DNA of 64,000 nt from Hevea brasiliensis (taxonomy: Eukaryota > Streptophyta > Magnoliopsida > Malpighiales > Euphorbiaceae): contig NC_079510.1 in NCBI RefSeq assembly GCF_030052815.1, positions 1,986,288 through 2,050,287 on the forward strand, given 5' to 3'. Made by a program: the position numbers and the translations under genes. Position 1 is the first letter of the stretch. Every line of letters begins with the position of its first letter. Shown here one piece after another: positions 24,893-53,951 of the stretch. Below the pieces are notes generated by a model. That model worked only from the letters and a program-made list of their open reading frames with translations. It was not told the DNA's origin and searched no databases.

Positions 24893-24893
24893 T
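24892..24893. other. Left junction of the proposed 29-kb inversion
   Basis: Ogre LTR (…AAAACCCGA) joins directly to the interior of a chromovirus LTR (TAGGGTTTTGAGAAG…). The chromovirus sequence matches the reverse complement of 57832 leftwards, and stops at the exact base where the fragment beginning at 53951 takes up. Confidence 0.8.
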
Positions 24894-27292
24894 AGGGTTT
24901 TGAGAAGTGAAAATTTGGCTTGGCTTAGGAAATTGTTAGAAAACATTTTAATGGTCAATTAGTGACCATTTTAGGTAAGTTGACCATAATTTGGACTGAA
25001 ATATAGCATGGCAAAGTGAAGGAGTATCTTTGCCTAGGACAAAGACGCGGGGTGACTGAAATTTCAGTCCACTTGGACTGCCATATCCTTGGCTGTGTTG
25101 GTCCAATTGGTGTTTGGCCAATTGGACATGAAACTAGGCTTATAATGGCACATTTTTGCTGAAGAAACCATGCCCAAAAGACCAAAGCAAGAGGACCAAA
25201 AGTTGGCCCCAATCCGGATACCCTGCAACAGCACCTGCAGAACTGACCAAATGAACAGTAACTATTCATTTGGCCATAACTCACTGTAGATATGGTCAAT
25301 TGACCTGAAATTTTTACAGCAACAAGATAAGATATAAACAAACAACTTTTATGAAGAAACCTACCCCAAATTATGCCATTAACCCATTCAAATTATTGAG
25401 CAAAGTTAAGTTATCAAACCTGCAACTCTGCAGATTTTCATTTGAGCAGTAATGTTTGGATGACTATAACTCTCTCTAGAAAACTCGGATTTAGGCGATT
25501 CTTGAACCGATGGAAACCTAAGGCATGGTAGAACATTTCATATGAAGAAAGTTAGACCAAATTATGAACTTAACTTGGTCAAATTACTGACCAAATTTGG
25601 ACCAAAATCTGCCAAAACTCAAAATTTCAGCATGAACAGTACACGTGAACAGTAAACTTATTTTGGCCATAACTTGAGCTACAAAACTCCAAATGGAGTG
25701 ATTCAAAAAAAGAAATTCAACTAGACAAAATAAGGAACAACTTTCATGTTTACCATTTCCTCAAATTCCCACTGTAACAGTGCTTAATGGAACAGTAAAA
25801 TTAAGCTTTAAAAACTGAAAATTTTGTTTCCCTTGGTTTAAGCCTAGAAATGGTAATGGTGATCACTTCCAACAAGTTTTAAATGAAAAATGTGGTATTT
25901 TTGAAGTGCCAAAGTCAAGGTACCTACTTTCTATGCAAAAATCAACTTTCTTGTTGACCAATGAAATGAATAGTGACACCAAAAGTTAAAATTCAAAGAT
26001 TGAAGAATTTTAAAGTATCAAATGCCCTAGTATACCTAACAAGATTGGTTTGGATAGTTTGGCATGCCAATAGGGTATTGTTTTAGCAGTACTGCGAAAG
26101 GCTTTATGCCTGTATTCATGGCTTTTATGCCTGTATTCATGGCTTTTATGCTCGGTTATGTGATATCATGGCTTTTTAGCCATACTGATTGCATACGTGG
26201 TAGACGTTCTGCGTCCCATGGTATGACGGCCCGAGGCACCACGGTGTCCAGTGCCAACGACCCATTATCCAGTCCAGTCGTCCAGTATAGGTTACTTGGG
26301 CATGGAAAAGTATAACTGCGGTTGCACTGATTATTAAAGAAAATACGAAAATTAAGTATCAGGAATGATTACAAAAATACAAAGAAGCTCAAGATCATGA
26401 AGAAAATAATTAACGAAATGTATGAAGAAGTTAATATCATAAAACATGATTAGCCCTTGACTAAACAATAAGTTAGTAATTAGTCAATTCTTATCAACAC
26501 AATAGCAAGGAAATTATTATTTTTATTTGCATATATTATATTTTCTTGTATTATTGGCACCACTAAGCTTTATGCTTAGCGCGTCACTTTTGCAACGCGT
26601 AGGTACTGAAGATTTGGACAGAGGGCCCGGTAGACCACAGATTGGGTAAGGCCATTCACAGTTCCGCATAGCGTGCGTGTCACCTCACAGACTACAGTGC
26701 ATTGGTAGGACACTAGGTCCCATTTTGTATTTTGAGATTTTTGTAAATTTGGTAATTAAACTCTTATTTTATCATATGTATTTGAACAAATGTAATATAA
26801 TTTTGTATTAATGTAAGTACTTGTAACTTGTGATTATAAATCACATGTGAGAATTTATTTATGATTTGAGTCTAATGATGATGTGAAATGACAAATAGAG
26901 GAATCGTTAAGAAATTGCTGTAACTTGATGTGATACAAAATGTGAATTGTATATGAGTACCATGAGATGAATGATTGAGAAATAAATGAAATTGATGAAA
27001 TTATTCTGAGACTTTGTTGATAATTGGAGTTGGGATTGATTGAATATGATCATAGGAAGTGTTTTTCACAGGTTCCGAAGAACTGTTTTCTCCATTTTTA
27101 GCCGTTACTCCGCCGGATTTTCTATAAAATTTTCGGAACCTCAAATAAATTACAATTTCAATAAATGAATTATATTTCACAAATTATTTTCAAAAACTAT
27201 GATAAAAATGAATTAAGATAAAATAGAGTGCTCCGGCACACTGAGTGGCATAACTTGCTCGGCTACACTGTAGTCGGGTAAGGGGTGTCACA
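24893..27292 (+). repeat. Gy2 LTR, displaced part (2400 bp)
   Basis: Reverse complement of 55425-57832 at very high identity, ending GGGGTGTCACA. It lacks the first 1.1 kb of the LTR, which is found at 53951-55070. It carries the double hairpin at 26556-26610 and the GGCTTTTATGCC minisatellite at 26099-26160 with one unit fewer than the other Gy2 LTR. ORFs at 24955-25341 (minus) and 26064-26315 are LTR sequence, not genes. Confidence 0.9.
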
Positions 27293-27297
27293 GATTC
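27293..27297. other. Gy2 target duplication, displaced copy
   Basis: GATTC on the plus strand, i.e. GAATC in the orientation of the partner at 58956-58960. It only becomes a matching pair if the inversion is undone. Confidence 0.8.
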
Positions 27298-28494
27298 CAT
27301 GTGGACAGTAATGCCTTAAGAGCAGAACCTTGTACTTTAATCTGTATCAAAGTGGCGATTTTCTCATACTTCTTCTCAAATATTACTAGGGTGTGTAGAG
27401 TAAGTGATTTCTAATAATTAAGCAAACTATCAAGAGTGGCTAATCTCACTTCAATCTTATCATGGTTAAGTGGAGGTAATGAATGAGCCCATAAGTCAAT
27501 GTCCCCTTCTTTAGCTTGTGAAGATTCTAAATTTTGGATTAAACTATGCTACTGTTGAACATTTTGTTCTCATCTTGTGATCTCATCAGTTGACTAACTT
27601 AAGATGCCATTGAAATTACTCTTGTTTACCCTTCACAAACAAATATCTTATGAAACCTGTTTCTAAAAAAATCGAAATATCATATTAGAAAATGATTATG
27701 ATTACGATCTAAGTAATTTCGAGTCATACTATTAAGGTAGATGATATCTATACATCTATTGAAGTAGGAAGATGCTTAGACTACTTAAATAGTATGATTC
27801 GAAATTACCCTAAATAAACATAAAAATGGTTAAATAAAGTAAAGGAAAAGAAAGCACGTCCCTTTTGCCTTAGGATGGGATAATCTTAACACCAAGTGAG
27901 TGTTATCTAATAGGATGGCTCTACCCTTAAAAGTGGTTTACTTTGGCTTTTAACTAATGTGATAGTTCTGTTCGAGGTCTAATTTGCTAAGATTTAAAGG
28001 TTTTCGAATTGCCCCTACTATAAATAGTAGAGCCTCATTTCATTATCATAATACTAAGGGGAAAATCCTCGGGTATCACAATAAATGAAAAAAGTTCCAA
28101 TCTGAGTGGAAGTCTTCCTAGATACTATCGGGGAAACTCACGAGTACCACTACATGACTTCCTCCTATTCCCTAAGGGTAAGAAAACCCGGGTATAGGGC
28201 TTAAGTATGTGTGGTTATTGTGTAAATGTCAAGTCTGTGAAGGGACATACCCACCTATTTCTTATTCAGGGAAAACCACAACAACACTGTTGTACCCTAA
28301 GGAAAACATTCGAACAATCATATAACAGAATAGTTAATAATGGATGAAAGTGAAATGATCATAGTAATAATTTTATAATATTTAAAATTCGACCAAGCAC
28401 AACCACCCTTGACATTTCATAAGTTAAACTCTAAGAGCACAAGATTTAATCTACTTTTGGACCTCTGGACTAGAAAGTTAAGTCTAGTATAATT
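27298..28494 (-). pseudogene. Ogre element 2 leader and start of ORF1
   Basis: Minus strand, downstream of a Tat primer site. Toward 27298 it reads ORF1-like protein (DIDLWAHSLPPLNHDKIE, LATLDSLLNY, KKYEKIATLI, then ALLSTW), with stops. That frame continues without a break into 58958 onward (N-P-I-Y-R-V-F) if the GAATC duplication is counted once. Ogre elements carry such an extra ORF1 (DUF7745-type) ahead of gag. About 700 bp nearest the primer site is non-coding leader. Confidence 0.75.
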
Positions 28495-28517
28495 GGTATC
28501 CCCAGTGGAGTTGCTAA
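28495..28517 (-). other. Tat/Ogre primer binding site of Ogre 2
   Basis: Minus strand reads TTAGCAACTCCACTGGGGAT, close to the Tat-lineage primer site (TGGCGACTCCACTGGGGA). It adjoins an LTR end (…TTGCGACA). Confidence 0.78.
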
Positions 28518-28519
28518 GT

Positions 28520-29225
28520 TGTCGCAAGGATTTTGCGGTCGTCAGACAATTTTCACCTAAGTGGAAAGTGAGGAGTTGCCACTTTAATTTTAAGGAAAAT
28601 TAAAGAAAGCCATTGGAAGCCTCTTTGCCCAATCTCATACTAAAGTGCTTTAACTACCTCAAATCCAATGGTTTAGATCTATCCTTGCAAATAAGATCAA
28701 TGCTGAAGATTGAAGTGTACCCGAATGCTTTAATTAACTCAAATTTGATGGTGAAAATTTGACCTTGTAAACCAAGTGCTATGATTCAAGGGTTAAGTGA
28801 TGTCTTTAAAATTCTGGCTTGCCCAACCCTTTTACTCTTTTCTGACCTTATGGTTTCCTTTATCCAATCTCTTTATCAGATCCCTTCATTCGATCTTTCT
28901 TAATTTGATGTTTCCTCATTGGAAGCCTCTTTGCCCGATCTCTCATCTGATCTATCTCTACACTTGTTGTCCGATCTCCTTTATTTGATCTTTTTTGTCT
29001 CGTCTGAAGCCTCTCCATCTGATCTCCCATCTAATCCGTGGTCTCTACACTTTTTATTTGACCTCTTTTATCTAGTCTATCTTTATTCTGTCTCTTATGT
29101 TATTAGTTCCCTCTCTAAAAAAAATGTAAACAGCACGTCTGAGGATACGCCTAGGATATTGAAAAAGCATTAAATGTTTTATCTAAGATGTCGCCTCGAG
29201 CCTCGCAAGCATCAAATGTATGGGG
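28520..29225 (-). repeat. Probable Ogre 2 5' LTR end and unassigned flank
   Basis: The LTR edge is plus-strand TGTCGCAAGG at 28520 (minus-strand end GCGACA). How far the LTR runs is unclear because no second copy is in the window. From about 28800 the plus strand has repeated pyrimidine-rich CCGATCTC/CTGATCTC blocks leading to the promoter-like site at 29226. No gene seen. Confidence 0.5.
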
Positions 29226-29240
29226 CTATATATATGAGGA
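29226..29240 (+). promoter_or_regulatory. TATA-like element ahead of the 29389 gene
   Basis: GGCTATATATATGAGG lies about 155 bp upstream of the ATG at 29389, followed by a pyrimidine-rich leader, as in a plant RNA polymerase II promoter. Confidence 0.5.
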
Positions 29241-29388
29241 AGGGGCTATTATTTCATACTTCTACATTCTTTCTCAAATTTCTCCAGTGAGTTTCCTCTC
29301 AAGTTTTCTTTCTCTGGCAACGAGATTTGGATTGAAGGTATAGTTTTTGATCTTTTTCCATTTATTATTTCCTTCTCTTACCTAAAAA

Positions 29389-31243
29389 TGAGTGGTATCA
29401 ATAGTCAAAGAGTGGCGAGCCTATCATCAGTCAGTGTTTTAAGGACCTATAATAAGGGTGAGAAGGCTAAACCAAGTGGGCAAACTGAGGTTGAAATGAT
29501 GGGTGAGCTGATCTCCAACTAGCCCACCAAGCTAAGCTAAGAATGGGCTCTGTACCCCAGGAAGGAAGCTCTCCTAGTGATGAGCTAATATCGGTTCTTA
29601 AGCATTCTAAATTGGTGTAAATCAGTCAGGAGTTCAACCTCTTGACCAATGTATATGAGCTCATCAAATGCCACAAGGATTTTTGAGCCAATCATTTTTT
29701 GGAAAAGGGAGACTAGATTATCATATATGAGGAATAGCTAAAAGACGGGCTACGATTCCCTTTAGAGTAGTTCTACAGGGATGTATTGAAGTATCACCGC
29801 ATCTGCATCCCTCAATTACATATGAACTCATGGCAAACTCTCATGGCCTTCTGAGGTTTGTGTCTAGCTAAAGGCCTTGAGCCTATAGTAAAGGTTTTTG
29901 TCGAACTACATTGGCTCACTTAACGAAAGAATGATGAGTATTAGTTTTTCCAAATGAAGCCAAACTATGGGCTCTTTACCGATCTCCCTTTCTCACTGAA
30001 GAACTAAAAATATTAGTTCTTTATTCTATGGAGCCGAGATCCCTATGGCTTTGAGGGTATTCTATGAAGCTAGAATTACTTGGCTAAAAGGCCAAAAAAG
30101 AAGATTGACCTTAATGAGGTCAAGAAGGCAATGGTCAAAAAGCTCAAGAGCCAGGTGAGCTCTCATCGATACCTGTGCTCGGACATTATTGGGGCCAAGC
30201 TAAAATGGTGGCTGATGAATGTGATTGCCCAAGAGAACGTTCCACTCTAGCTCTCTGACCTCAGGCCTCCAAACGGTAAAACCCCTTGTCCCAAGTCTTA
30301 TGATCAATACAAACTCACTAACTTCTTTTTGTGTGCAGATATGGTGGGTTCTCATGCTAAAAAGGTCACAAAGAAACAAAAGAGAGAGCTCACCTAATGG
30401 GTTTTTGAAAAGAAGGAAGCGACCATTACTACTGCTATTACTGCTGCTTAAACTATAAAAGCCAAAGAGCTTGAGGTCCAAAAGAGAGCTCAAAATGAAG
30501 GGGCAATCTCTCAAGCTTGAGCTAAAGAATAAGTCACAATTGAGAGATTTGTTCCCCCTCTTTAGCAACCTCTGCTCCAACCGACAACATCTACTGCCTC
30601 CGAGGGTGCCTCTTCCGGGCAAGCTGGCTCATCCAGACATCCAATCTCTAGGGGGGCCCAGGTATTGATGAGGTCTCTTAAGAAAAACTGGACTATCAAG
30701 GGAAATGTAAACCTCACTTGAGTTACTGGTGCCACAATTTGCTTTGCTGACGACCGAGATTAGATGGGCTTGGAGAGCATCGACAATCTCCTGAATCAAT
30801 CGATGAGCCTAAGTCTAGAAGTAGTAGCTACCTAGCACATGGTGAGGGAAAAGCTGATCTTTTTGAGATGGGAGATGTCTAAGGCAGTCCACGAGCTTAT
30901 CGGCTATAAAAGCCAGTTAACCGCTACCAACACTCAAATTGGAGAGCTTGAGCAACAACTAAAATCTTCCTAGGATGTCATAGCTCAAGAAAAAAAAATA
31001 AGAAATTGAGGATGTGCAAGTAGGCTAAGCAGTTGACTTGGTCACATATAATGAAGATCTAAAAGCCAAAGAGGATGAGCTGAAGGCAAAGGAGAATGAA
31101 GCTCTGGAGAGAGAAGCTAAAGCTTATGTGCAAGCTCATAGTGATCTCCTTACCTAACTGCTCAAGTGCTATCCTCAGGAAGACTTCACCTACCTTGAGA
31201 GGCTCACCCCAGGTGTAGAGGCGGAGAGCGAGAGTGAGTGAGA
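29389..31243 (+). pseudogene. Decayed 'putative gypsy-type transposon' (PF04195-like) gene
   Basis: Opens MSGINSQRVASLSSVSV at 29389. Later pieces, in shifting frames, include LKDGLRFPL, FYRDVLKYHRICIPQLHMNSWQTLMAF and a downstream YQFFQMK, which look like the N-terminal domain of plant gypsy-type transposon proteins. From about 30350 to 31240 the coding is Lys/Glu/Ala-rich (coiled coil), ending LTPGVEAESESE then a stop at 31241-31243. Many stops. The family call is from memory of the motif pattern and is moderate. Related plant elements carry this gene next to Tat-type sequences, which fits the neighbouring Tat primer site. Confidence 0.5.
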
Positions 31244-31369
31244 GGGGGGGTTATGTAACTAATGTTCAGGTTGAGGGAGAACCGCCCGCAGAATGACTTG
31301 TAATTTTTGAAATTTGTTAAAAAATAAAATATCATATGAGATCGATCTTTTTAACATTTTTGCTTTTCA

Positions 31370-31830
31370 ACTAACCTTAGGATCTATTGAGATCAAATAA
31401 TCTTAAGACCGAACCTTAAGATATATTAAATTAAGCTTTATTAAGATCGGGTAATTTTAAAACTAAACTTCAACTAGAAACAAATGAAACTTAAAACAAG
31501 TATTATTGAGATCGGATAGTCAACATACGGAAATTGAACATGAACCAAGAAACTAGACTTTGATTAAAATATAACCAAAATTAAGATGAGTACGTAAAAT
31601 TAAGCTTTGCGGAGATCAAATAATCAGCATACAGAAATTGAACTTGAACAAAAAAACTAGACTTCGATTAAAATATGACCAAAATTGAGACAAGTATGTA
31701 AAATTGAGCTTTGTGGAGATCACATAATTAGCATACGAAAATTAAACTTGACTGGGAAATCGAATTTTGATTCAAACATGAACAAAACTAGAACTTATAT
31801 AAAATTGAGCTTTATTGAGATAGGATAATC
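31370..31830 (+). repeat. Degenerate ~111-bp tandem repeat
   Basis: The block AAATTAAGCTTTGCGGAGATC...CATAC...AAATTGAACTTGAAC...ACTAGACTTCGATTAAAATA repeats about four times with drift (for example 31598 and 31709). AT-rich and non-coding; it lies between two decayed elements. Confidence 0.7.
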
Positions 31831-32165
31831 ATAATACTGGACTTTGATTAAAACCTAAAAATAAAATTGAAACTTGAAATTGATTGTGATTTACTAAATT
31901 AACACAGAAAATTACAAATTCTCACCATTTAAATGACCATACAAAAAAAAAATTCTCACCATAAATTTACCTTGAAATGTAAGAAGGCAAAGAAATGGTA
32001 CAAGGCTTATGTTGCTGATAAGGTTGATAGCATGAACTAATCTTAATTTGTGGTAGAATTTACTAACTAGGCCTTCCCATAAAGCTCTAGGGAGTTGAAG
32101 GTTGTAAACTTTGAACAGTTGAGACAAACAACTACTATGAGTGTAGATTTGTATAAGACAATTTT

Positions 32166-32462
32166 ATGGATCTTCTGCAGTATGTAGGGCAAGAGTATGA
32201 TACTGATATAAAAAAAGCTAAGAGATACACCCAAAGGTTACACTCTAGATATTCTTCTTTGATTTTAGCTACTGAAACCCACAGCTTCCATTTGATAATA
32301 GATGCTATAAGGAAGAAGGAAGCTGGGGTTATCATTAAAGGGAGTCTAGATTTGAAAAGTACTGAGGCTGAACAATCTACCATTTCAAAGGCTATAGATG
32401 CTAGGAGATTCAATCACATGATAAAGGCTATTTCTCCATCCGAGACTAAGAAAGAAAAATGA
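32166..32462 (+). pseudogene. Gag core of decayed gypsy element
   Basis: A 98-residue open piece (MDLLQYVGQEYDTD, KRYTQRLHSRYSS) resembling the second half of a plant gypsy gag core. A zinc-knuckle remnant follows at about 32570-32665 (YVKCGKPHQGPC; YYRCE then EGHMSRECP) with a stop inside it. The role was RNA packaging. Confidence 0.65.
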
Positions 32463-32908
32463 GGGAAGTTTAGCAAGAACAAAAGAAGAATAAGTTCTAG
32501 AATAAAATCAATTTAAGCCTCGAGATGAGAAGTGGATCTAGTTCAGGTTCAGATACTTCTGGTTATGTTAAATGTGGAAAACCTCATCAAGGACCATGTA
32601 GGTTTAGAATCTCTAAGTATTACAGATGTGAGTAAGAGGGACACATGTCACGAGAGTGTCCCAATATGGAAAGAGTGGCTTCTCAATAAGTAGGGTCAGG
32701 CAGTGTGGCCCAACCTGCAGTGAGACGGACTTCTGTGGGTCCCTCATTAAGAAAGGGAAAGGGTAGAGGATGAGATTCTTCATCCTCCATAACAGGTTTA
32801 TAAGGGAGGGGTTCGACATCAATAGCTCAAATCTTTACCATAACACAACAAGAAGCCAATACCTCTAACATTGTGGTGTAAAATAACCTTTGTATAAATA
32901 GTTTCAAT

Positions 32909-33235
32909 GTGCATGCTTTGATTAATCCAGGCACTTCACATTCTTTTCTTAACTTTGATACAGTCCTAAGATTAAGATTGGCAGTCTTAAGTTTAGAATG
33001 TCCATTAATTATTAGTGGACCCAAATGTGACCATTCAAGAATAGGGATGATTTATTATGCTTGTCTAGTGATGATTGAGGACAGGTGTTTTCCAGTTGAC
33101 CTAGTAGTTCTAGAGTTAACAGATTTTGATGTTATTCTAGGAATGGATTGGATCTCTACCAATTATGCTACCCTAGATTATAGAAGCAAGATAATAAAGT
33201 TTAGAGGACAGGATGGGTTAGTTGTAGCATTCTAA
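32909..33235 (+). pseudogene. Aspartic protease of decayed gypsy element, catalytic Asp lost
   Basis: A 108-residue open frame with the retropepsin fold lines ALINPGTSHSFL and VILGMDWIS. The family active site is ALIDPGSTHS; here the catalytic aspartate codon is AAT (Asn, 32924-32926), so the protease cannot work. A TAA ends the piece at 33235. Confidence 0.82.
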
Positions 33236-34124
33236 AGAGATAAGGTAGTACCTGTAAACGGTATGATCTTAGCCATACAAGCTAGAAGGATGCTCCAAAA
33301 AGGGTGTAAAAGGTTTTTAGCTCATGTTAAAGAAGTTGTGGAAAACAAAGGTGGACCAGGATCAGTTCCTATGGTAAGAGAATTTCCCGATGTGTTTCTA
33401 AAGAGTTACCTAGATTATCGCCTGATATGGAGATAGATTTTGAAATTGACCTAGTGCCTGGCATTAGACCCATATCTATCCCTCCTTACAGGATAGATCT
33501 TACAAAGCTAAAGGAATTAAAGGAACAACTATAGGATTTAGTGGATAAGGGATTCATTAGATCAAGTACCTCTCCTTAGGGTGCTCCTGTGTTATTTATG
33601 AAGAAGAAAGATGGATCCATGAGGTTATGCATCTACTACACACAGTTAAATAAAGTGACCACAAAGAACAAGTACCCTTTATCTCATATTGATAACTTGA
33701 TTAATTAGCTAGCAAGAGCTAGTTGCTTCTCTAAGATAGACATAAGGTTTGGATATGACCAGTTACGGATCAAGGACACAAATATTTCGAAGACTGCTTT
33801 TTGGATCAGATACGAGTATTATGAGTTTCTTATGATGCCATTTGGGTTAACCAATGTCCCAACTGCATTTATGGATCTCATGATAGGGTATTTAGACCTT
33901 ATCTAGATCACTTTGTGATCGTCTTTATTAATGACATATTAGTATATTCCAAAAGTCCCAAAGAACATGCACTGCATCTAAGAACGGTTCTTCAGATATT
34001 AAGGGAGTATCAGTTGTATGCAAAGTTTTCTAAGCATGAGTTTTGGCTGAAGAGTATATTTTTCTTGGGATATGTAATGTTAGAGAAGGGAATTGGAGTA
34101 GATGCTAAGAAGGTTGAAATATGA
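33236..34124 (+). pseudogene. Reverse transcriptase of decayed gypsy element, FIND instead of FIDD
   Basis: Recognisable from VREFPDVF (33376) through [53 protein letters not shown] and the catalytic box, to FFLGYVM. Frameshifts near 33395 and 33888, and several stops. The first catalytic aspartate of the FIDDILVYS box is AAT (Asn) at 33930-33932, so polymerase activity is lost. The last open stretch is 33915-34124. Confidence 0.88.
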
Positions 34125-34133
34125 CAGATTAGT

Positions 34134-34713
34134 CAAGTCTGACTACAATCACTGAGATTAAGAGTTTCCTAGATTTGGCGGGCTATTATAGGAGATTTGT
34201 GCTTGATTTCTCTAAGATAACTACACCAATGACTATGTTAACTTAGAAGAATAAGTGGTTTGAATGGAGTGATCAGTGTGAGAAGAGCTTCCAAAAGCTT
34301 AAGGAATTTCTAATTTCAGCATCCATGCTGGCTTTGCCTTCAATTAATGAAGATTTCACCATTTAATTTGATGCCTCCAGAGTCAGTTTGGGATGTGTTC
34401 TTATGCAGAATAGTAGAGTAATAGCTTATGTTTAGAGGAAGTTAAAGAAGCATGAAGCTAATTATCCCACTCATGACTGACGATAGTCATAGTCTTTGCC
34501 CTAAAGATGTGGAGACACTATCTCTATGGGGTTAAATATGAAATTTTCACATACCACATGAGTCTCCAGTACATTTTCAACTATAAATAGCTAAATCTCA
34601 AACAAAGGAGATGGATAAAACTGCTTAATGATTATGAATATACCATTTAGTACCATCCGAGAAAGGAAAATATTGTTGCAGATGCCTTTAACCAAAAATC
34701 ATTTAGCAATTTT
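34134..34713 (+). pseudogene. RNase H region of decayed gypsy element
   Basis: Readable pieces: FEWSDQCEKSFQKLKEFL, FDASRVSLGCVLMQNSRVIAY and EANYPTHD, then a degenerate end near 34700 at the position where relatives have ADALSRKS. LTR E begins at 34714, so the integrase is missing. Confidence 0.75.
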
Positions 34714-41412: not shown

Positions 41413-41440
41413 CTCAACTCAACTCAACTCAACTAAGCCT

Positions 41441-42103
41441 TTATCCCAAAAATTTGGGGTCGGCTATATGGATTCGCTTTTTCCACTCTGAACGATTTTG
41501 GGTTAAATCCTCAGAAATGTGTAATGCTTCTAAGTCATGCTGTACTACTCTCCTCCAAGTCAATTTAGGTCTACCCCTTTTTTTCTTTCTATCCTCTAGC
41601 CTAATGTGCTCTACTTGTCTAACTGGAGCCTCCGTATGTCTACGCTTCACATGACCAAACCACCTCAATCTCCCTTCTCTCAACTTATCTTCAATTGGCA
41701 TCACTCCTACCTTTTCTCTAATACTTTCATTATGGACTTTATCTAGTCTAGTATGGCCACTCATCCACCTTAACATTCTCATCTCTGCAACTCTTATCTT
41801 AGATGCATACGACTCTTTCAGTGCCCAACACTCACTACCATATAGCATAGCCGGTCGTATGGTCATGCAGTAAAATTTTCCTTTTAATTTATTGGGAATC
41901 TTATGATCACATAAAACTCCCGTGGCACGTCTCCACTTCAACCATCCGGCTTTAATCCTATGACTAACATCCTCCTCACATCCCCCATCTACTTGAAGGA
42001 CTGAGCCTAGATATTTAAAGTGATTACTTTGGGACAGTGCCACTCCATTCAAACTAACTCCTTCCCTATCACCAGTTTGGCCTTCACTGAACTTGCAATG
42101 CAT
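41441..42103 (-). CDS. RTE C-terminal domain (ORF2 end)
   Basis: A 220-residue open segment continuing the RT frame after a small indel near 42117. It contains [53 protein letters not shown] and the end HIADPKFLG followed by a stop. This is the standard thumb/C-terminal part of plant RTE ORF2 proteins, function beyond RT support unknown. The stop lies about 30 bp before the TTGAGT tail. Apart from the frameshift joining it to RT it is intact. Confidence 0.9.
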
Positions 42104-43053
42104 GTATTCTGCTTCGTTCTACTTAACTTAAAACCCTTTGACTCTAGAGTACTTCTCCAAAGTTCTAGCTTCCTATTGACTCCTTCTCGTGTCTCATCTA
42201 TCAGAACAATATCATCCGCAAACATCATGCACCAAGGAATACTCTCTTGTATATGTTTCGTCAGTTCATCTAAAACTAATGTAAAAAGGTAAGGGCTTAT
42301 GGCTGATCCTTGGTGTAATCTAATTGAGATCGGAAAATCTCTTGTGTCCCCTCCCACTGTGCGCACAATAGTAGTTGCTCCTTCATACATATCTTTCAAT
42401 ACTTGTATATACCTAATAGATACCCTCTTTTGTTCTAACGCATTCCATAAGACCTCTCTTGGAACACTATCATAAGCCTTCTCCAAATCAATAAAAACCA
42501 TGTGTAGATCTTTCTTCCCATCTCTATATTTCTCCATCAAGCTTCTAATGAGAAAGATCGCTTCCATAGTTGAACGACCAGGCATGAAACCAAATTGATT
42601 GAGAGAGATAGAAGTATCATGACGTAGTCGATGCTCCACAACTCCCTCCCACAACTTCATAGTATGGCTCATGAGTTTAATTCCCCTATAGTTTGAGCAA
42701 CTCTGTATGTCTCCCTTATTTTTAAAAATAGGTACTAAAATACTCTTCCTCCATTCATCAGGCATTTTCTTTGAGTTTAGAATCTTATTAAATAATTTAG
42801 TTAACCATGCCACTCCCATATCTCCCAAATACTTCCACACTTCAATTGGTATTTCATCGGGTCCACAGGCTTTACCTACTTTCATTCTCTTAAGTGCTTC
42901 CTTTACTTCTAAAGATCTAATCCTTCTAGTATAATTTACATTCTTTTCTATTGTTCTATAATCTATATTCACGCTATTTCCATTTTGACTATTATTAAAG
43001 AGATCATTAAAATAATTTCTCCATCTTTCTTTAATGTCCTCATCTTTCACCAC
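42049..43053 (-). CDS. RTE reverse transcriptase domain
   Basis: A 334-residue open segment with the LINE RT boxes in order: [59 protein letters not shown] and the catalytic FADDIVLI (FADD codons at 42211-42222). All catalytic aspartates are present. It copies its RNA at a nicked chromosomal site. A frameshift near 43055 separates it from the upstream linker, and another near 42117 from the C-terminal part; the copy is also 5'-truncated, so it is dead. Confidence 0.93.
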
Positions 43054-43255
43054 ACTTTTCCTTCTTTATCCTTAATGCACCTAACTTGATTGAGATCTTG
43101 ACATTTCCTTTCTCTACTCCTTGCTAATCTATAAATATCTTTCTCCCCTTCTTTAGTTTCAAGTTTCTCATATAACTTTTCAAAGGCCTGTGCTCTTGCT
43201 TGGCTAACTGCCTTTTTTGCCTCTTTCTTTGCTATCTTGTACTGTTCATATGCCT

Positions 43256-43880: not shown

Positions 43881-44307
43881 CTATTTTATTTCTTTTAATT
43901 AACAATTGAATTTAATTATCAAAAGCCCATAAGTCATAATTTTAAATTTTGTCTTAATGAAAATGAAAATTTAAGTTTTCGCTTCTTAAATTTCCCTTAC
44001 ACATTTTTACTTGAATTTTTCCTCAAAAATTTATTCATAATTCAATTTACTATTTTCATTTACTTAAATTAACATTTTGGTCAAAAATCAACTCTTAAAG
44101 TGAATTCATCAAAATGCCCCTTATCAGTTCATAATCCCTCTTTTACAATATACCCGGTGAGTCCTTGTATTTTTGGGTCACTTAAATTTTTATTGTGTCT
44201 ATCTCAATTAATTTTCTATTTATTTTTGGTCCTCAAAGTGTCTTTGAATAGTACTAGTCACGGACCAAAAATGGTACTATTCATAATTAGAGGTTCAGGA
44301 TGTTACA

Positions 44308-44432
44308 GTCTTCATGCTACCTCTCTGTTACTTGTCTCAAGTATCACCTTCATTTGAGCTATCCATGTATCCTTAACTGATAATTCTAGCCATCACCCTT
44401 CTCCAATCAGCTGGTGCAACTTCTCCAAAAAT
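44308..44432. other. Unassigned sequence between LTR D and the next LTR
   Basis: Host sequence of LTR D. It joins 39042-39091 on the left. No recognisable gene; the minus strand has a 40-residue coding-like stretch with stops. Confidence 0.35.
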
Positions 44433-46596
44433 CATATATGTATGTATGTGTGATGTGTTCAAAATGTATTTAAAAAATGAAAATATTTTAAAAGTTTTAA
44501 TCTCTAAAAGCTTTTAAGTGTTTCGTTGGGTAGAAGAAACTTCAGCAGTCAAAGTATGTACTTTCAATAGCTGAAGTCCCTTTTTACTGTTCAAATCCTT
44601 TTTGGGCAACATGGATTCTGGCAGCTAGAATTATGACTTCTTGCAGTTGAAATTCCCTCGGTAGTGAGTGTATAAAGGGCTAACAACTTATTTTCTACCA
44701 AAAAGGAACTTAAACTCTCTATCTCCTAAGCTTTGGGGACATGTAAGGTTGGGTTTAAAGAGGTTCTCTTGGCCATATCATGCTTTGAACTTTGATTCTT
44801 CTTTAGGGAAGCTTGGTGAAAGTGGATTGAAGTTGGAATTGTCAATTTACTTCCTTCTCCATTTCAAGGGAAAGTGGTAATTTCTCTTTTGTTTTGGTTT
44901 TTTAGTAGAATCCAAGTATACCTAAGTGTATCAGATTGTTGGTTTTTGAATTACATATGATTTTTGCATGGTTTTAAGTTTTTTATTTTTAGGAAAAGAG
45001 TTGCATGTTGAGATTTTGGATGAAAGTATGATTTTCCTTGTTGTATTTTGGTATTTAATTGTTAAATGAGGTGTTGTTCTTACTTCTGTCAAGTCTAAGT
45101 GTTTATGGTGATAATAGAAATTTGTTAGAACCTTGAATCCTAGCTTTTAATTGTTGCATGTGAGCTTGGAGCATGGATTCAAATTGTTTTAGTCCTCAAG
45201 AATGTGTTTATATGTTTGAATTGTGTTTTCGAGCCTTGTGGTATGTTTTGAGGTTTTGGGAGAGAGTTTCTGATGGTTTCAACTTGAGAATTTTGAAAAA
45301 TCACAGGTTCAGCTGCCAACATGTAGTTTCTCATGAAAGAATCTAGAGAAATTCCAGATTTGGCACCCAAAGTCTAAGACTTGGGCAACTGCAATGGCTA
45401 CTACCCAAAATGAGCACCCGATTCATTAGCTGAAGTCTAAAACTCCAACAGTTGAACATAGTCCTCCTGGCCTTATTTCTCCTTTAGTTCTAAGGTTCCA
45501 AAACATGATTTTATTGGCCTAGTATAAGATGTTTGTTATGTGTATAGAGTTTTAGAGCTTTAAATAACTCCTTAGGTTATCATGTTTATAGGATCAAACT
45601 TGAGGGATTTAAGAAGCTAAGAATCCAAGGCTAGCTATTATTCATGTTAGGTGTTTGATAGGCTACAAGAGGTGTGTAACTCTAACCCTAATAAATGTAA
45701 AATTCTTTAAATAAGATTCATGATCATCCGCATGTATCATTTCATTGTTTACTAGAGTGTATGTATCTAGAACACAAAAAAGTTGCATTTTGCATAATTA
45801 TTATTGATGCATGATGGAATTTGGATGACCTACTGATTCCCCCTATGTTACATATATGTTATATTTATGATGTAATTATGCATGATCTGTGGTAATAAGA
45901 CTAGGTAAGGCCTAATAAGCTCCTAGTGCACTACTTTTAAGCAAAAGTCATGAGAAGCTTCTATATGAACCTGGCATATTGGACATATTAAGCAGAAGTC
46001 TTGAGGAGCCTATGTATGAGCTGGGCATATTGGATCTGGGGAATCACTGGTGATAAGTCCATCTTATGTGGAATGCTTATAATTTGAAAACTCATTTGGA
46101 TGATGCATTGCATATGTATGAAATAAATGATATAATTAATTGATGTTGGTTAGTTTTCTCACTAAACTTGTGTAAGCTCAACCTTTTCCCCTAACCCCAA
46201 GTGCAGAAGTGTAGTAATAAAAGAGTTCTTTAGAGTGGAGCAGTAGGAGTAGCTGTAAAGTTTTCATATGTATGTTTAATGGACATGTAATATGCAAAGG
46301 AATAGTTACGGTGTTGGTAATCAAGTTTAGATAGAGGTTTTATCTTAAGCTTAAGTGATGTAATTATATATGTGTTTGAAATCTAGGCTAACTCCTCACG
46401 TGAGTATGTACGTATGAACTAATTACACTTTAGTGATTTTATGTATGTAAAGATTTAATGGGTTAGAATATGCTTGGATTATGAGATATAGGGATATGTT
46501 CATGTTTAACAGGTTTTAGGCTTGCTATGGGTTCCAGCAGCCTTAAGCTGATTTATTTGCTAGCACTGATAATGGCCCCTAAGTTGGGTCATTACA
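44433..46596 (+). repeat. LTR-like block H (edges approximate)
   Basis: Has a TATA-like GTGTATAAAG (44666-44676), a leader, a run of LTR-like non-coding sequence and ends GGGTCATTACA at 46596, the usual CA end. A (TATG)n run at the left blurs the other edge. AAAAT at 44428-44432 and 46596-46600 may be a target duplication overlapping the edge. No primer site follows, so it may be solo. Short repeats AGCAGAAGTC(T/A)TGAG occur at 45950-46005. Family unknown. Confidence 0.5.
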
Positions 46597-47139
46597 AAAT
46601 TTGTACAGCTCATCGTCCATGGCCATGCTTGTTTCTTCGCCATGACCTTGCTCGTGGTTAATCTTCTGGACAAATTCTAATCCACAAACATATTCGTCCT
46701 AATCCATTAGATTTGCTCTCTCTTTCCATCCTAAATAGAAGTCTTTACTACCAAAAATGCATGCCAAAAAGTAAAAATCCTAACATAACTGAAAGATAAT
46801 GACTTAAAGGGATAAAAACTAAACAAATAACAAAAAATAATAAAAAAAAATAAAATTAACTAAAAATAAGTAAAATAAATAAGTAAAAACACATAAATTT
46901 ATATGTTAAAATATGACTTATCAAATACGCCCACACTTAAGATTTTACTCGTCCTCGAGTAATAGGGGGAAATAAATCACAAAACAAAACAGCAAATAAG
47001 ACAAAATAGTAGGTTATAAAGCTATCCAAACCATGATTTCCCAACTGGATACACTTTAAATTTAGAAGAAATCAAACTAACCATATCCATGATGACCTTT
47101 TTCTTATCCAAGCAAAACTTGAAAACACATGTGTAAACC
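46597..47139. other. Unassigned AT-rich sequence
   Basis: Contains an A-rich zone (46740-46900) and the block CCACACTTAAGATTTTACTCGTCCTCGAGTAA (46932-46962), a type of sequence met in plant LTR-retrotransposon interiors. No gene. Confidence 0.4.
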
Positions 47140-47535
47140 TGTAACATCCTAAACTTCTGAGCTCTGAATAGTGCCATATTGAATCAGTGAATAGTACTAT
47201 TCAAAGCCAGTTTGAGGATTAAAAATGAAATGAAAATAAATTGAAATAAGCAGTATTAAAATCAAATTGACCATCGAGTTAGGGAGTTAAAAGTCATTAT
47301 CGAAAAAGATTGACTATAACCCGATGAGGGGCATTTTAGTTATTTGACACCCATAGTTGACTTTTGACCTAAATGTTCATTAAAATGAGTGGCATTAAAA
47401 TGTTGAAAATGCATTAAAAATTTGAAGTGTTTATGGAAATTAAAAAGGGATATAAAGGGAATTAAGAAAATTAATATAATTATAATCATATTAATTAATT
47501 TTAATTAAAAATTATGACAAATTATAATTAGACAC
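47140..47535 (+). repeat. LTR F, first 396 bp
   Basis: Starts TGTAACATCCTAAACTTCTG and resembles the start of LTR D (reverse complement of 44307 leftwards: TGTAACATCCTGAACCTC). It is cut at 47535 by the Ogre 1 LTR edge. If the inversion is undone, Ogre 1 sits in F and the rest of F is expected to the left of the window. GACAC at 47531-47535 would be the Ogre 1 target duplication. Confidence 0.65.
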
Positions 47536-49829
47536 TGTATGAGGGGGGGCGTGAGACGAAATACCATCCATTAGAATTATATAAAATACACCAGGTAATG
47601 CCCAGGAAAGATAGTGGAGTCACAATGGTCTCACTTAAGTACCACCTCCTTAGAAAGCATTTCCTAGACATGCACTTCATAAAATCCTAATAGAATCAAA
47701 CCACTGGTAAGTACCGTCTTCCCATAACACTACTACGGTACTAAGGATTTATGCCACAAAGATGTAGATAGACAGGAGTCGCCACCCGAGTAATAACCGG
47801 GACATATTCAGTGTTTCTTTCGAGGGTCATGGATGGCAACTTACTCCTTGCAGAGTTTCCACAACTGTCATTACCATAGCCCAATATCTAGGTTCGGGAT
47901 AGTGGGTACGTAAGGGGAAGGTGTTAGGCACCCCTTACGCCTAGTCTAACCTCGTTAATTCGAGTGCCAGTCCTCTACTAATGTTTCTAAAAGTCTTGTT
48001 TATCATTTCTTTATTAAACTTCATTCTAAAAAATGCAATTCTAATCCTACACACGCAAGTAATTCACAAAAAGGGTTGTTATTTACACACAATTTTCATG
48101 CACAAGTAATTCCTATCTATAGGGTTGCTAATTATTTAAATGATATTTACCATATGACTAAAATTAATTTATTATTGAGAATTTAATTTACAAACAAATT
48201 CAATTTCAAATAACCCTACGTTTCTATTTAACCTAATTAATTAATTTTCACCAAGTTACCCTAAGGATAATTGAACTAAGTTAATTATGTACATGTGTAA
48301 TTTATTCTAATATCACATAAGGCCCAAACAATCACAACCTAATAAAGATTTCTAACATGCAAATTTATTTTACAATTACCAAGTATTAAATTAAATTTAT
48401 TTACATGCCAATGTTAATTTAATTTACAAACAAGATTAATTTTAATTTCAAAGTATTTATTTAAATTAATTACATGCAAAAGTCAATTAAATTAAAAATA
48501 AATTTAATTTTAATTTACCAAATAAAAGTTCTATTATTACTACAATTTCATGCCAATGGTTATTCGAGAAGTTTAGAGCTACTTACCTATTGGTAAATGC
48601 AGTTGCTATTGGAGCAAGCTACCCTTAAAAAAGGGTCTTTTCTTCTAGTATGGCAATGATATCCCTGGCTTACTCCCGTTTAGCTCCATTTAAGCTTCAC
48701 GCAAATCCCTCTTTGGTACTTACCTTAGGACTACTTACCAATTTTTTTTGTAATAAAAAATAAAGAAACTAAAGAAAATAAAAGAAAAAAAGAAAATTTT
48801 AATAAAAATTTACATTGGATTCTAACTCTAGTCTTCTAAAGGGTTAAGATTCTTAATTAGTTACAACTACCTAATGGTCTAAGTCTTCTAACATGATCCA
48901 AACACTTCATAACACTTCTTGAATTAAAGGAAAACAGAAAAATAGATCAAATATCAATTAAAACCCAAGAAAATACAAAAACATGCATAAATATACAATT
49001 TCTAAATTCTCGTAGATTAATGGTAGCAAGAAATCCGATTTTTTAAAAATAGTTATACATGCCTAAAAATCATAAAACAATTACAGAAGACAGCCTACAT
49101 ATCATACAAGATCATAAAATTTATAAATCAAACAAAACCCTAGCTGAATGGTCTACATAAATCGTAACTTTTCTAAGTGACAGAATTGTACTACTTTTTT
49201 ATAAAATTCATAACTCATTAACCACAATAGATATGAATGAAAAACCAATTGGAAAAGATTCATAAGATTCTTAAGTTAATTTTAGACACTAGATTTACAC
49301 AAAAATATTAAGGAACAAGGGAGATATGGGCTCCGCAAGTCGGATATCCTGCAAATCAGATTTTACAGGAACCCTAACTTCAAATAGTCATAACTTACAA
49401 AATATTAAAGCTTTTTTAGTGATTCTTGAGCCTAAAATTAATGGAATTTTGTTTAGAATATGAATATAATTTTTACAAATTTTTTACAGATTCAGAAAAT
49501 AAAGAAAAATAATAAAAATATGAGAGACAAAAAATTGAACATGTGCAGAGTTGTGTATCCCCTCAAATTAAACATGATTACATGACCTATATGAACATAT
49601 AAAATAAATTGAAGACAAAGAGCATAGAATTAAAATATTGTGTGGCATAGATCTTGAAAAAAAACAATAAAAACTGACCTTCCAGAAATCTTGTATGAAA
49701 ATCTTCTTGAAGAAAAGAAAAAAATAAGGAAGAACTCAAAGAGTCTTGAATATCTCTAAGTTTCCTATAGCTCTGAATTTTCTCTTCCTCTTTCCTCCCA
49801 TCCTCCTTTTCTTCCCTTCTCTAGTAGGG

Positions 49830-49837
49830 TATTTATA
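49830..49837 (-). promoter_or_regulatory. Ogre 1 LTR TATA box
   Basis: Minus strand TATAAATA within CCCTATAAATACCC, followed downstream (minus) by a pyrimidine/purine leader. Position fits the LTR promoter. Confidence 0.65.
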
Positions 49838-49853
49838 GGGTTTTGGAAGAGAC

Positions 49854-50099
49854 GTGTGATAGGGTTTGGAGTCTTAGGGTTATAAAGTTTAGATGACTTA
49901 AACAACTACGATTGCAGAATTCGAATAAGACCAGGATATGGGTGAGGTATTTCAACCAATAGGAAGACAGGAAAAAATGGAATGCACCAATAGGAGGCGA
50001 GGAAGAGGTGTGGTAGGGTTTGGAGTCCTAGTGTGATAAAGTTCAGATAACTTAAATGACTAGGATTGATGAATTTGGATGAGACTGGAATATGGGTGA
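49854..50099 (-). repeat. 154-bp tandem repeat in the Ogre 1 U3
   Basis: Units start GTGTGATAGGGTTTGGAGTC at 49854 and GTGTGGTAGGGTTTGGAGTC at 50008. The second unit is split by solo LTR G and finishes at about 53606. Each has a GGATATGGGTGAGGT...CCAATAGG block. Repeats upstream of a TATA box may act as promoter elements; that is inference. Confidence 0.85.
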
Positions 50100-53000
50100 T
50101 GTAACATCCCCGTTGTATGTGTTCTGTACGTTTAATTGCTCCAGTAGTCAAATAACAGTCCAGGCAAGTCAGGATGTCTGGAACTACACTTCGGTGATGG
50201 TGAACAGACATATAATGATGAAATAAATAAAAAGAAAATACAAGAAAAATCAAACAAAAATGAAAGAGAGAAAACGAAGCTAAGTTAAACGAGCCAAGAT
50301 CATGGCGATGGGTGACCGCACCGAAGGCCGTTAATTCTTGACCACGGGGAACCCTCTGAATCTAATTTTGAGACATAAATAAAGGTTTATTGAAATGTAA
50401 TTGACACTAGAAATATCAAAGAAAAATTAGTAAATTAGTACAAAGAAAAATGAAAAATTGAGAAATAGACAAAAATCGGTGTTACCGAAAAATCGGGAAT
50501 GTAACCCGAAGTGGGGTATTTTGGTCATTTGACACCTAGAATTGGCTTTTGACCTCAATGTCCATTAAAAATAAATGATATTACACCTTAGAAAATGACA
50601 TGAAAAATTAAATTATGATGCATTATGTAAATTGTGAAAGAAAAGAGGTAAATGTGTAAATAAAGGAACCTTAACCTAATTAAACATTAAACAACTCATA
50701 AGTGCTCCACTAACTATATTATAAACTACATAAAATAAGCATTAGTGGGCAGAATTGGGTCATCTTCAACCTTGAGAAAACCTTGTCAGAATCCTCTCAA
50801 AGTCCTCCATGGCCACCATGCATGGAGCTTTCTCTCTCCATCATCAAGCCCTCATTTCCACTTCCTTCCTTCATTAAAGCTTGCATACTCACCTTGGGGA
50901 AGATATTGGCAACAAGAAAAACAAGATTTGGTGAGGTTTGAAGGAAGCTTTAAAGTGGTAAGTGTCCAAAATCCCTCCCTTGCTTTAGTAAAGCTTGTGT
51001 TTAGGTTGAGGTGAGTGTTTTGGTGAAGAGAAATGAAAGAAATAGTGAGAAATGAATTTGTCCATTTTTGGCAGCCATGAACCCTTGTTGAGCTTGAGTT
51101 ATTTTTACTTCTAATGAATGAAAATGAAGGTTGATTGATTCAAATGAAAGTTAGAGTAAGTTTGTGCACAAGTATGTACATGTAGTGTTTAGATTAAAGG
51201 TGTGAAATGGAACCTTGAAGCCTTGAGCAAACTGCCATGTTTGGCAGCCCCTAATAGCATGAATTTGTGTGTGAATATATGGTTATTAATGATATATGTT
51301 AATGTCAATTTGTGGGCAGCAAGTGTAAGTGATGTTGAAGTATGAATATGTTGAAGTATATGTGTAATATTAACATTGAAGTATGTTGAATTTTGGTGGA
51401 AGTGAATGTTGAACTTAATGATGGATTGTGTGCATTGAGCACTTGAACATTCTACCCAGAATTGTTGCTGAAATTGTGTATAATATATGTATAGAAGTAT
51501 TGTTGATTGAATATTGTAGTAATGAGGAGCAGAAGGAACATTAAATTGGAAGTGTATGAGCTTTGTGCAGGTTGTGTATTGAAGGTAGCACCTAAATGAG
51601 GCCATAAGTGCCAAACTATGAACCCAATTGGTATGAGGCCAATATGGGGTGAAACTAGACACTAAATAGGCCAACTTTCATGTAGAAAGGTTGCCAAAAT
51701 TCTGCCTAGAAACTGACCTTAAAAAGTGACCGAATCTGGATTAGTGCAATTGAGGCCTGAAAACTAAACATTTGGGCAGCAGTTAGTTTTTAGGCCATAA
51801 CTCACTCAAAACAGGTCCAATTGACCTGAAATTTTGACCATGAATAGTTAAGACCTATATCTACAAGTCTTATGAAGACACCAAAGCCCAGAAATGACCA
51901 GAACCAAGGCAAATGGCTTGCACAATTTCGAGCACAAAAACTGCCGAACCAAAAGTGACCTAAAAATTGACCAAATTGTGCACTAAAAGTGCAATCTGTC
52001 CAGCTTTAGCAAATTGACCATATCTTGGTCTACACAACTCGGAATGACCTGAAATTTTGCCCCGCGTGCAATAAGACATAGAGCTACAATTTTGCTTCTT
52101 TGACCAGGAGCTAAAAACCAAGGGAAATAGGACTTTAAGCTAGACCAATCTAGCACACAGAAAGTGAGAATTTGACATTTTGCATACAATGATGCTTGAA
52201 GCATTTTGGCAATGAATGCCAACTTGTAAAAATGGTAAATTGCACTATATTGGCAGCATATTGAGAGATAAATTGTGACATATTGATGCTAGAAACAACT
52301 TGTTCATATTACCTAAAAAGGTCAACATATGCATTGACTTGTGAATTATATAATAGTTAGTAAACTCCAAAGATTGAAGAATTAAACAATTAAATTATAA
52401 TGTGCCCTAGTTTGCCTAGTTGACTAGTATGGATAGGTTGGCATGCCAATAGGATTCTGACAGCTGTTCTGTAAATGGCTTCATGCCATACTGTGTTTTT
52501 ACGGCTTATTATGCCGCACTGTGACTTTAATAGCCTACGGCTATACATATTGTGTATTTATTTTTGGCTTATCGCCAGATTGACTATATGGCTTTTTAGC
52601 CACGCTATTTGCACACCGGGAGACACTTTGTGACCGATGGTGTGACGGCCCGAGGTACTAGGTACCCAGTGCTAGTATATTCGTTTATTCAGTCTGGTCA
52701 GTATATAGGATACACGGGCAGTAATTCAAGTACTACTAAATTCAAATAACTAAATTCAGTCTTCTGACATACAACACTACCAAAATTAGCAGATATTGAA
52801 ATGTTAGCAAATAAAGGTAGAATCAACAATTGTGAAGAACACCGATGCCATAAATTTATTTACTTTATTTTAGTGTATATTTCTTTATATTTGGCACCAC
52901 TAAGCAAAATTGCTTAGCGCGTTGCTTTTGTAACGCGTAGGTATTGGAGACACAGCTAGGGAGCCCAGCAGACCTACTACCGGGTGAGACATCAGATCTG

Positions 53001-53542
53001 CACAAGAGTCCAGAGTCATTTGCACTACATTGCATACATGATAGGACTTAGGATATCTTGTATTTTGTACTTTTGTTGTATATTTGAAATTTGGCCTTGT
53101 ATTTTGTAATATTATGAAAGCCTTAAAGTTTGTAATATTTTGTACATATTAAATAACATGGAGATTTTCTGTATATATTTAAATTATTATGGACTGTATT
53201 ATGGAATAGTTTAATGACTTTAAAAGTCTATTGACTTTACTGAGAAATAGAGACTGTGAAATATTTGAGATTTTGATATCATAATATTAAACTGTTTTCA
53301 ACAGGTTTGGAAGGACAGTTGTCCTAAATATAGACGGCACCTTGCCAAATTTTTATTACCAGTCTTGAAACACTGATTTTAACAAAGTATGACAATAGTA
53401 TCAACATGATATGAATATTACATAAATGACTTCTTAAAATCAAATTGAGTTTAGAAAATGTGATATTCATAGACTAGGTGCTCCGGCACGCCGTGTAGCA
53501 AGCCTTGCTCGGCTATTCTGTAGACGGGTAAGGGGTGTTACA
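50100..53542 (+). mobile_element. Solo LTR G, 3443 bp
   Basis: Starts TGTAACATCCC and ends GGGGTGTTACA, flanked by identical GGTGA at 50095-50099 and 53543-53547. It has a TATA-like TATTATAAAC (50715-50726), CATAACT-type modules at 51790-52030, a GGCATGCCAATAGG block (52441) and the double hairpin (52892-52945). No internal region remains. The rejoined flanks restore the second 154-bp Ogre repeat. Confidence 0.92.
52892..52945 (+). other. Double hairpin in solo LTR G
   Basis: Stem 1 CTAAGCA/TGCTTAG; stem 2 CGCGTT/AACGCG, perfect; followed by TAGGTATTGGAG. Confidence 0.75.
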
Positions 53543-53811
53543 GGTGAGGTGTTCCAACCAATAGAAAGAGAGGGAAGCGGGTGACACCAATAGGGAGTGA
53601 GGAAGAGAGTGAGGCCAAGGAGGAGAGAGATATTTTGTTATTTTAATTTTCAAAAAATAATTAAATGGGTCCCATTTAAAATTCATAACTAGCCTTTCTT
53701 AGGCCCATGAAGCCCAATTAAACTTAATTAGATCCATTTAAGAACTACCCATATTAAATTTAAACAAAATAAAATTTTATTTAAATTTAATTAAATTAAT
53801 TTTCCCAAAAC

Positions 53812-53850
<39 letters not shown>

Positions 53851-53874
53851 TTTTTTTTTTTTTTTTTTTTTTTT
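53812..53874. repeat. (TTA)n followed by a T run
   Basis: About 13 TTA units then about 25 T, in the Ogre 1 U3. Confidence 0.95.
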
Positions 53875-53949
53875 CAAGATCATGCCACAGAATTAATAAT
53901 TCAGCTCCATGCCTCGAATTACATCTTACAGTCATATAATTTTTCATCA

Positions 53950-53951
53950 TG
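53950..53951. other. Right junction of the proposed 29-kb inversion
   Basis: Ogre LTR (…TTTTTCATCAT) meets the inside of a chromovirus LTR (GCATCCATTTC…). In the intact Gy2 LTR the base before GCATCC is at 57832 and the preceding sequence is the one found, reversed, at 24893. Confidence 0.8.

What the first reader, a model, noticed from the sequence alone, without database searches (positions are those of the whole stretch)
24893..53950. A 29-kb inversion cutting two retrotransposons, proven internally by restored TSD, LTR and reading frame
Four independent repairs follow from flipping this one segment. (1) Chromovirus LTR pieces 24893-27292 and 53951-55070 join at the exact base (57832/57833 in the intact copy) into a 3520-bp LTR, against 3531 bp for its partner. 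(2) The 5 bp outside become GAATC on both sides of Gy2. (3) The Ogre ORF1 frame on the minus strand at 27298 runs on into 58961 in phase through W-N-P-I-Y. (4) The 53-bp start of the Ogre 1 3' LTR at 24840 joins the rest in direct orientation. Chance cannot give all four. Junctions show only 0-3 bp of microhomology between unrelated LTRs, suggesting end joining, not homologous recombination. It postdates Gy2, whose LTRs are nearly identical. An assembly inversion remains possible, though a misjoin is less expected between non-homologous sequences.
Basis: partly seen in the sequence, partly recalled or inferred. Interest (0 to 1): 0.9.

Follow-up and report, generated by a model that had tools for sequence, protein, structure and literature searches.

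The report
Small inversion splitting rubber-tree retrotransposons
In the rubber tree genome sequence a 29,058-base piece of DNA made largely of old mobile elements sits the wrong way round, splitting two of those elements; it is an unusually well documented example of an ordinary kind of DNA-repair accident.

Summary
Segment 24893-53950 is inverted relative to an inferable ancestral order, and independent copies in the same genome (Hevea brasiliensis) back the repairs. The split chromovirus-type LTR (24893-27292 minus, 53951-55070 plus) meets at one exact base of its partner (57832/57833); 3 of 3 close copies looked at read through there. The Ogre LTR start (24840-24892) runs directly into the complement of 53950 in 14 of 14 other copies examined. 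The Ogre pieces ending at 27298 and starting at 58961 lie exactly 5 bases apart in 14 of 14 copies examined, GAATC in 11: the target site of the insertion. Each junction has one full-length match in the assembly. The break sites share no detected homology; junction B has no microhomology, junction A one ambiguous T, and the event gained one base. Two breaks rejoined inverted by end joining fits best. It postdates the chromovirus insertion (57 of 3505 LTR sites differ, about 0.6-1.2 My at recalled rates). An assembly error is unlikely (no N, no shared sequence at the joins, one base gained) but was not excluded: no reads or other accessions were within reach. An ordinary kind of event, read at base resolution.

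The parts
24893..53950 (.). Inverted segment, 29,058 bp
   Evidence: Both junctions split sequences that are continuous in other genomic copies
24892..24893 (.). Junction A: Ogre 1 LTR joined to reversed chromovirus LTR
   Evidence: One full-length match in the assembly; T 24893 fits either side; small inverted repeat AAAACCC-GATA-GGGTTTT here
53950..53951 (.). Junction B: reversed Ogre 1 LTR joined to the rest of the chromovirus LTR
   Evidence: One full-length match in the assembly; 39 of 39 other scored matches stay within one half
17048..18444 (+). Remnant of the Ogre 1 5' LTR
   Evidence: 96.6% to 47536-48931 minus; PBS-like site 18448-18463 (motif recalled); pairing with Ogre 1 inferred
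24825..24839 (+). Polypurine-like tract of Ogre 1
   Evidence: Sequence; role recalled from the family
24840..24892 (+). First 53 bp of the Ogre 1 3' LTR, left outside the inversion
   Evidence: Continuous with the complement of 53950 in 14 of 14 copies
53548..53950 (-). Continuation of the Ogre 1 3' LTR, up to the nested solo LTR
50100..53542 (-). Solo LTR nested in the Ogre 1 3' LTR, TSD TCACC (53543-53547 and 50095-50099)
47536..50099 (-). Rest of the Ogre 1 3' LTR (outer end inferred from the match to the 5' remnant)
   Evidence: Match to 17048-18444 over 47536-48931
24893..27292 (-). Gy2 (chromovirus-type) left LTR, outer 2400 bp, inverted
27293..27297 (-). TSD GAATC, inverted side
27298..27497 (-). 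Ogre 2 piece that ended at the Gy2 insertion (searched stretch)
28501..28516 (-). PBS-like site, probably of Ogre 2
   Evidence: motif recalled, up to 3 mismatches
53951..55070 (+). Gy2 left LTR, inner 1120 bp, outside the inversion
55071..55424 (-). Gy2 interior, 354 bp, no coding capacity seen; PBS-like site 55408-55419 on the minus strand
55425..58955 (-). Gy2 right LTR, intact 3531 bp (the 5' LTR if the PBS-like site is right)
58956..58960 (+). TSD GAATC, right side
58961..59060 (+). Ogre 2 piece that continued the one ending at 27298 (tested stretch)
   Evidence: 14 of 14 empty sites

Best explanation
A real chromosomal inversion of 29,058 bp in the rubber tree lineage. Two double-strand breaks, one about 53 bp into the 3' LTR of an Ogre element and one inside the left LTR of a chromovirus-type element (Gy2) nested in a second Ogre, freed the segment between them. 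Both ends were rejoined in the opposite orientation by non-homologous end joining. The Gy2 break lost and gained nothing relative to its partner LTR. The Ogre break was probably staggered by one base and filled in, which left one A on both sides. Shown: ancestral continuity at the sites in other copies, reciprocal junctions, no detected homology between the break regions, 1-bp net gain. Inferred: that the breaks were simultaneous, that classical NHEJ was the pathway, and that the inversion exists in the plant and not only in the assembly.
For: Exact reciprocal split of one LTR with 3 of 3 close read-through copies elsewhere. 14 of 14 Ogre LTR copies continuous. 14 of 14 empty sites with exactly one 5-bp target. 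One full-length match for each junction among the 40 scored. No match between the Ogre break region and the Gy LTR on either strand. Net +1 A against 14 of 14 copies. No N in the window. Cas9-induced inversions in tomato protoplasts include precise joins, and most imperfect joins carry small deletions (PMC13094083, passages).
Against: No read or second accession was examined. No uninverted copy of the locus was found in this assembly for a direct comparison. Genome searches score only the 40 best candidates. The single extra A could be a private variant of this Ogre copy that preceded the inversion. A replication mechanism with two template switches would leave similar junctions.
Confidence: 0.84

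Rival explanations
1. Assembly artefact: the contig was flipped or misjoined and the plant carries the uninverted order.
For: No read was checked. The source assembly (probably the Nanopore/BioNano/Hi-C one of PMC10106855, passages) is repeat-rich, and the uninverted order is what all element copies predict.
Against: Neither join has sequence shared by both sides beyond one base, so overlaps cannot mislead an assembler. Both joins are base-exact and reciprocal. The window has no N, so no scaffold gap sits at a join. A flip in silico would not gain a base.
Confidence: 0.08
2. Replication-based template switching (two switches to the other strand and back) made the inverted order without two double-strand breaks.
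For: 1 bp of ambiguity at junction A and one extra base are compatible.
Against: Exact reciprocity with nothing lost or duplicated beyond one base over 29 kb is easier by cutting and rejoining.
Confidence: 0.06
3. Homologous recombination between inverted repeats turned the segment round.
For: The window is full of related LTRs in both orientations. A solo LTR related to Gy2 starts 408 bp from junction B.
Against: The breaks lie in LTRs with no detected homology. The two Gy2 LTRs, and the solo LTR, were in direct orientation to each other before the event, which would give deletion and not inversion.
Confidence: 0.01
4. The pieces belong to different elements and only look complementary.
For: Both families have many copies.
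Against: Two pieces meet at one base, and the outer ends carry the same 5 bp that 11 of 14 empty sites show once.
Confidence: 0.01

Closest known systems
Cas9-induced paired-break inversions in tomato protoplasts (PMC13094083; passages seen)
   Same: Two breaks on one chromosome rejoined inverted, precisely or with a few bases changed
   Different: Here spontaneous, found in a genome assembly, in repeat-rich DNA; breaks not targeted
[quoted passage not shown] passages seen)
   Same: Natural plant rearrangements in retrotransposon-rich DNA; end-joining signatures at indels, and one inversion of about 6.5 Mb
   Different: Those were read by comparing two genomes, and several carry long deletions or inserts; here the ancestral order comes from element copies within one genome, and almost nothing was lost or gained
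Inversions between sugarcane Bru1 haplotypes (PMC4902974; passages seen)
   Same: Small local inversions in plant DNA
   Different: The one analysed there was thought to come from duplication and inversion of a neighbouring segment; no duplication is seen here

Membership tests
Inversion by non-homologous end joining | Two reciprocal junctions whose sides are each continuous in ancestral copies | tested here: met
Inversion by non-homologous end joining | No inverted homology between the two break regions | tested here: met
   BLAST of both break regions against the window, both strands
Inversion by non-homologous end joining | Little or no microhomology and small indels at the joins | tested here: met
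   0 bp at B, one ambiguous base at A, net +1 bp
Inversion by non-homologous end joining | Junctions present in genomic DNA of the plant | not testable with these tools
   No reads held; PMC10106855 states that reads of the likely source are under PRJCA006928 (passage)
Inversion by recombination between inverted repeats | Homologous inverted repeats at both breakpoints | tested here: not met
Chromovirus (Gypsy) for Gy2 | Chromodomain after integrase | tested here: inconclusive
   Gy2 has a 354-bp interior without such genes. The related element Gy1 has RT, RNase H, integrase and a Chromo match at E 2e-4, 21.6 bits against a cut-off of 25.1; its LTR is 87-88% alike to Gy2 over about 640 bp
Ogre/Tat (Gypsy) | Long LTR starting TGTAGACC after a G-rich polypurine tract, tRNA-type PBS, extra ORF before gag | tested here: inconclusive
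   LTR start, polypurine-like tract and PBS-like sites seen (motifs recalled); the extra ORF and the pol domains of these two copies were not tested

The most novel reading that the evidence does not exclude
The two breaks were sequence-directed: both fall directly after the same word, AAAACCC followed by G or T and A (the Gy2 site resembles a plant telomere repeat unit, recalled), in the same orientation in two unrelated LTRs, so a nuclease or a fragile motif may target LTRs of different families and drive inversions.
Probability: 0.04. Interest if true: 0.55.

Novelty: new member of a known kind. Interest (0 to 1): 0.3.

Why it matters
Small inversions inside repeat-rich plant DNA are hard to see without a second genome. 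This one can be read at base resolution from one genome, because nested retrotransposons carry their own record (paired LTRs, target duplications, many sister copies). The same logic could be run genome-wide to count end-joining inversions and date them by the elements they cut. For this locus it would also correct an annotation that calls the split LTR pieces separate elements.

Tried and rejected
A second in-window copy of the Ogre 1 LTR start: none; resolved with genome copies. A second haplotype or duplicate of the locus: the Gy2/Ogre 2 border (40 scored of 450 candidates) and both junctions (40 of 871, 40 of 423) each have one full-length match, the window itself; the 32 other matches to the Ogre half were 98% identical. 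Shared AAAACCC at both break sites: P 0.0009 for that exact comparison, but 0.02 when other sides, orientations and offsets are allowed; treated as chance. Breakpoint as a family mosaic boundary in the Gy LTR: 6 of the 7 copies L002-L008 look different in the first bases after it, but their alignment to the intact LTR runs through it in 7 of 7; dropped. Coding content of the inverted segment: ORF 42049-43065 looks like a plant LINE-1 reverse transcriptase; ORF 41441-42118 had no Pfam match. Literature: the listings showed no report of this inversion, in this open library only. Papers seen: passages by term search in PMC4902974, PMC7156093, PMC13094083, PMC10741621 and PMC10106855 (59, with abstract and outline in 60); PMC12512020 searched for four terms, none present; the others as search listings only.

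Full report
What was checked. The finding says that flipping 24893-53950 repairs two retrotransposons in four ways. I tested each repair without rebuilding the elements, by aligning the pieces separately to the intact partner LTR and to copies elsewhere in the same genome. The window lies at G000:C18:1986288-2050287 of a 1.877-Gb assembly in 755 contigs. The source is Hevea brasiliensis: a protein named as Hevea (P0177) has a longest contig of 116,300,341 bases, exactly the length of C5 of this assembly. The accession is probably the wild tree MT/VB/25A 57/8 (PMC10106855, passages: 18 linkage groups, N50 102.0 Mb; C8 here is 102.0 Mb). That paper gives 1.72 Gb of contigs against 1.877 Gb here, so the identification of the accession is an inference.

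The split LTR. 24893-27292 on the minus strand matches 55425-57832, and 53951-55070 on the plus strand matches 57833-58955. The pieces meet at 57832/57833 with no base missing or repeated. Three of three close copies in the genome (L051, L053, L054) are identical to the intact partner over 60 bases before and 30 after this point. Seven more diverged copies (L002-L008) align through it at 78-82%, although 6 of these 7 look quite different in the first bases after the break point. The two pieces differ from the partner by 42 of 2385 and 15 of 1120 aligned sites (Fisher P 0.39), in total 57 of 3505, K 0.0165. That is 0.63 My at 1.3e-8 or 1.18 My at 7e-9 per site per year, rates recalled and not calibrated for Hevea. 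The inversion is younger than this insertion.

The target site and the host Ogre. The bases outside the two outer LTR ends are GAATC on both sides after flipping. I searched the genome with 200 bases of the Ogre piece ending at 27298 (40 scored of 69 candidates) and examined the 14 best copies other than the window. In 14 of 14 the piece starting at 58961 follows after exactly five bases, GAATC in 11, GAATA, AAATC and GAACC in one each. This is the empty site of the Gy2 insertion. It shows that the sequences now at 27298 and 58961, 31.7 kb apart and on opposite strands, were neighbours. This supports the in-phase join at DNA level; I did not translate a joined frame.

The Ogre LTR. The 53 bases from 24840 have no second copy in the window, so this repair could not be tested from the window alone. 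The genome search with the sequence reading down from 53950 (40 scored of 743 candidates) gave 11 other copies with flanks, and one search gave three more. In 14 of 14 the 53-base start stands directly before it. In 12 of 14 the joint reads CCG then ATGATG; in two (L023, L032) the G is an A, with no change of length. None has the extra base that the window shows when its two sides are counted together (A 24892 and the complement of 53950). The event therefore gained one base at the Ogre break, unless that copy already carried a private extra A.

The junctions. Each has one full-length match in the assembly, the window itself. For junction A, of 39 other scored matches 7 cover only the right half and 32 reach one or two bases past the joint from the left. 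For junction B, 39 of 39 other scored matches stay within one half or the other. The border of Gy2 with its host Ogre at 27298 also has one full-length match, so no second haplotype or duplicate of the locus was found. At junction A the T at 24893 fits either side; at junction B no base does. The break regions show no match to the other LTR on either strand; a solo LTR related to Gy2 starts 408 bp from junction B. After the inversion, junction A carries the small inverted repeat AAAACCC-GATA-GGGTTTT, because AAAACCC precedes both break sites. The chance of that is 0.0009 for the exact comparison and 0.02 when other sides, orientations and offsets are allowed. I do not lean on it.

Mechanism. 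Two breaks with inverted rejoining by non-homologous end joining is the simplest account. It needs no homology, and a one-base stagger with fill-in explains the extra A. Experimental inversions in tomato protoplasts show the same range of joins, precise or with small deletions (PMC13094083, passages). Homologous recombination is contradicted by the unrelated break sites, and by the direct orientation of the two Gy2 LTRs before the event. A double template switch is possible but unneeded.

Artefact question. Not settled, because no reads were available. Against an artefact: no N in the window, no shared sequence at either join for an assembler to be misled by, two base-exact reciprocal joins, and a one-base gain. 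The likely source tree was described as having a low heterozygosity rate (PMC10106855, passage), which fits a single haplotype. I give about 8% to an assembly error.

Further support. The remnant of the Ogre 1 5' LTR (17048-18444) and its likely 3' partner (47536-48931) are 96.8% alike over aligned sites and lie in opposite orientation now. Flipping makes them direct, as an LTR pair must be. That they are one element's pair is inferred.

Orientation of Gy2. A PBS-like site lies at 55408-55419 on the minus strand (motif recalled), so Gy2 is probably read on the minus strand. The LTR cut by the inversion is then its 3' LTR.

Verdict. The event belongs to a known kind. Its interest lies in the completeness of the internal record, not in a new mechanism.

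Noticed in passing
55071-55424 and loci L056-L061: The Gy2 interior is only 354 bp between 3.5-kb LTRs. It is no private deletion: 39 of 39 other scored matches cover 349-354 of the 354 bases at 96-98%, out of 3973 first-look candidates. In the five other loci looked at, the LTR end lies beside the interior in 5 and the LTR start in 4. It looks like a very numerous non-autonomous family with giant LTRs and almost no interior.
   Followed up: partly
G000 C7:11237912 and 11242711; C8:69565219 and 69569763; C8:66185910 and 66189805; C8:82192411 and 82196824; C1:36377077 and 36380945: Interiors of the same family in pairs 3.9-4.8 kb apart, as expected of LTR-interior-LTR-interior-LTR tandems.
   Followed up: no
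L057-L061: The 354-bp interior is 97-98% like that of Gy2, while 18 of 19 LTR matches beside it are 82-92% alike and the alignments break up; the LTRs may be mosaic or recombining.
   Followed up: no
50100-53542: Solo LTR (3443 bp) inserted in the Ogre 1 3' LTR with TCACC on both sides.
   Followed up: partly
42049-43065 (minus): Open reading frame for a plant LINE-1 type reverse transcriptase inside the inverted segment. The best protein hit and several others carry catfish names, perhaps plant sequence in fish assemblies.
   Followed up: partly
1-9665: A chromovirus-like element (Gy1) cut by the window edge, LTR pair 97.7% identical over the part present, with RT, RNase H, integrase and a weak Chromo match on the minus strand.
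   Followed up: partly
23928-24728: Direct repeats of about 232-251 bp, 90-92% alike, just before the Ogre 1 polypurine-like tract.
   Followed up: no
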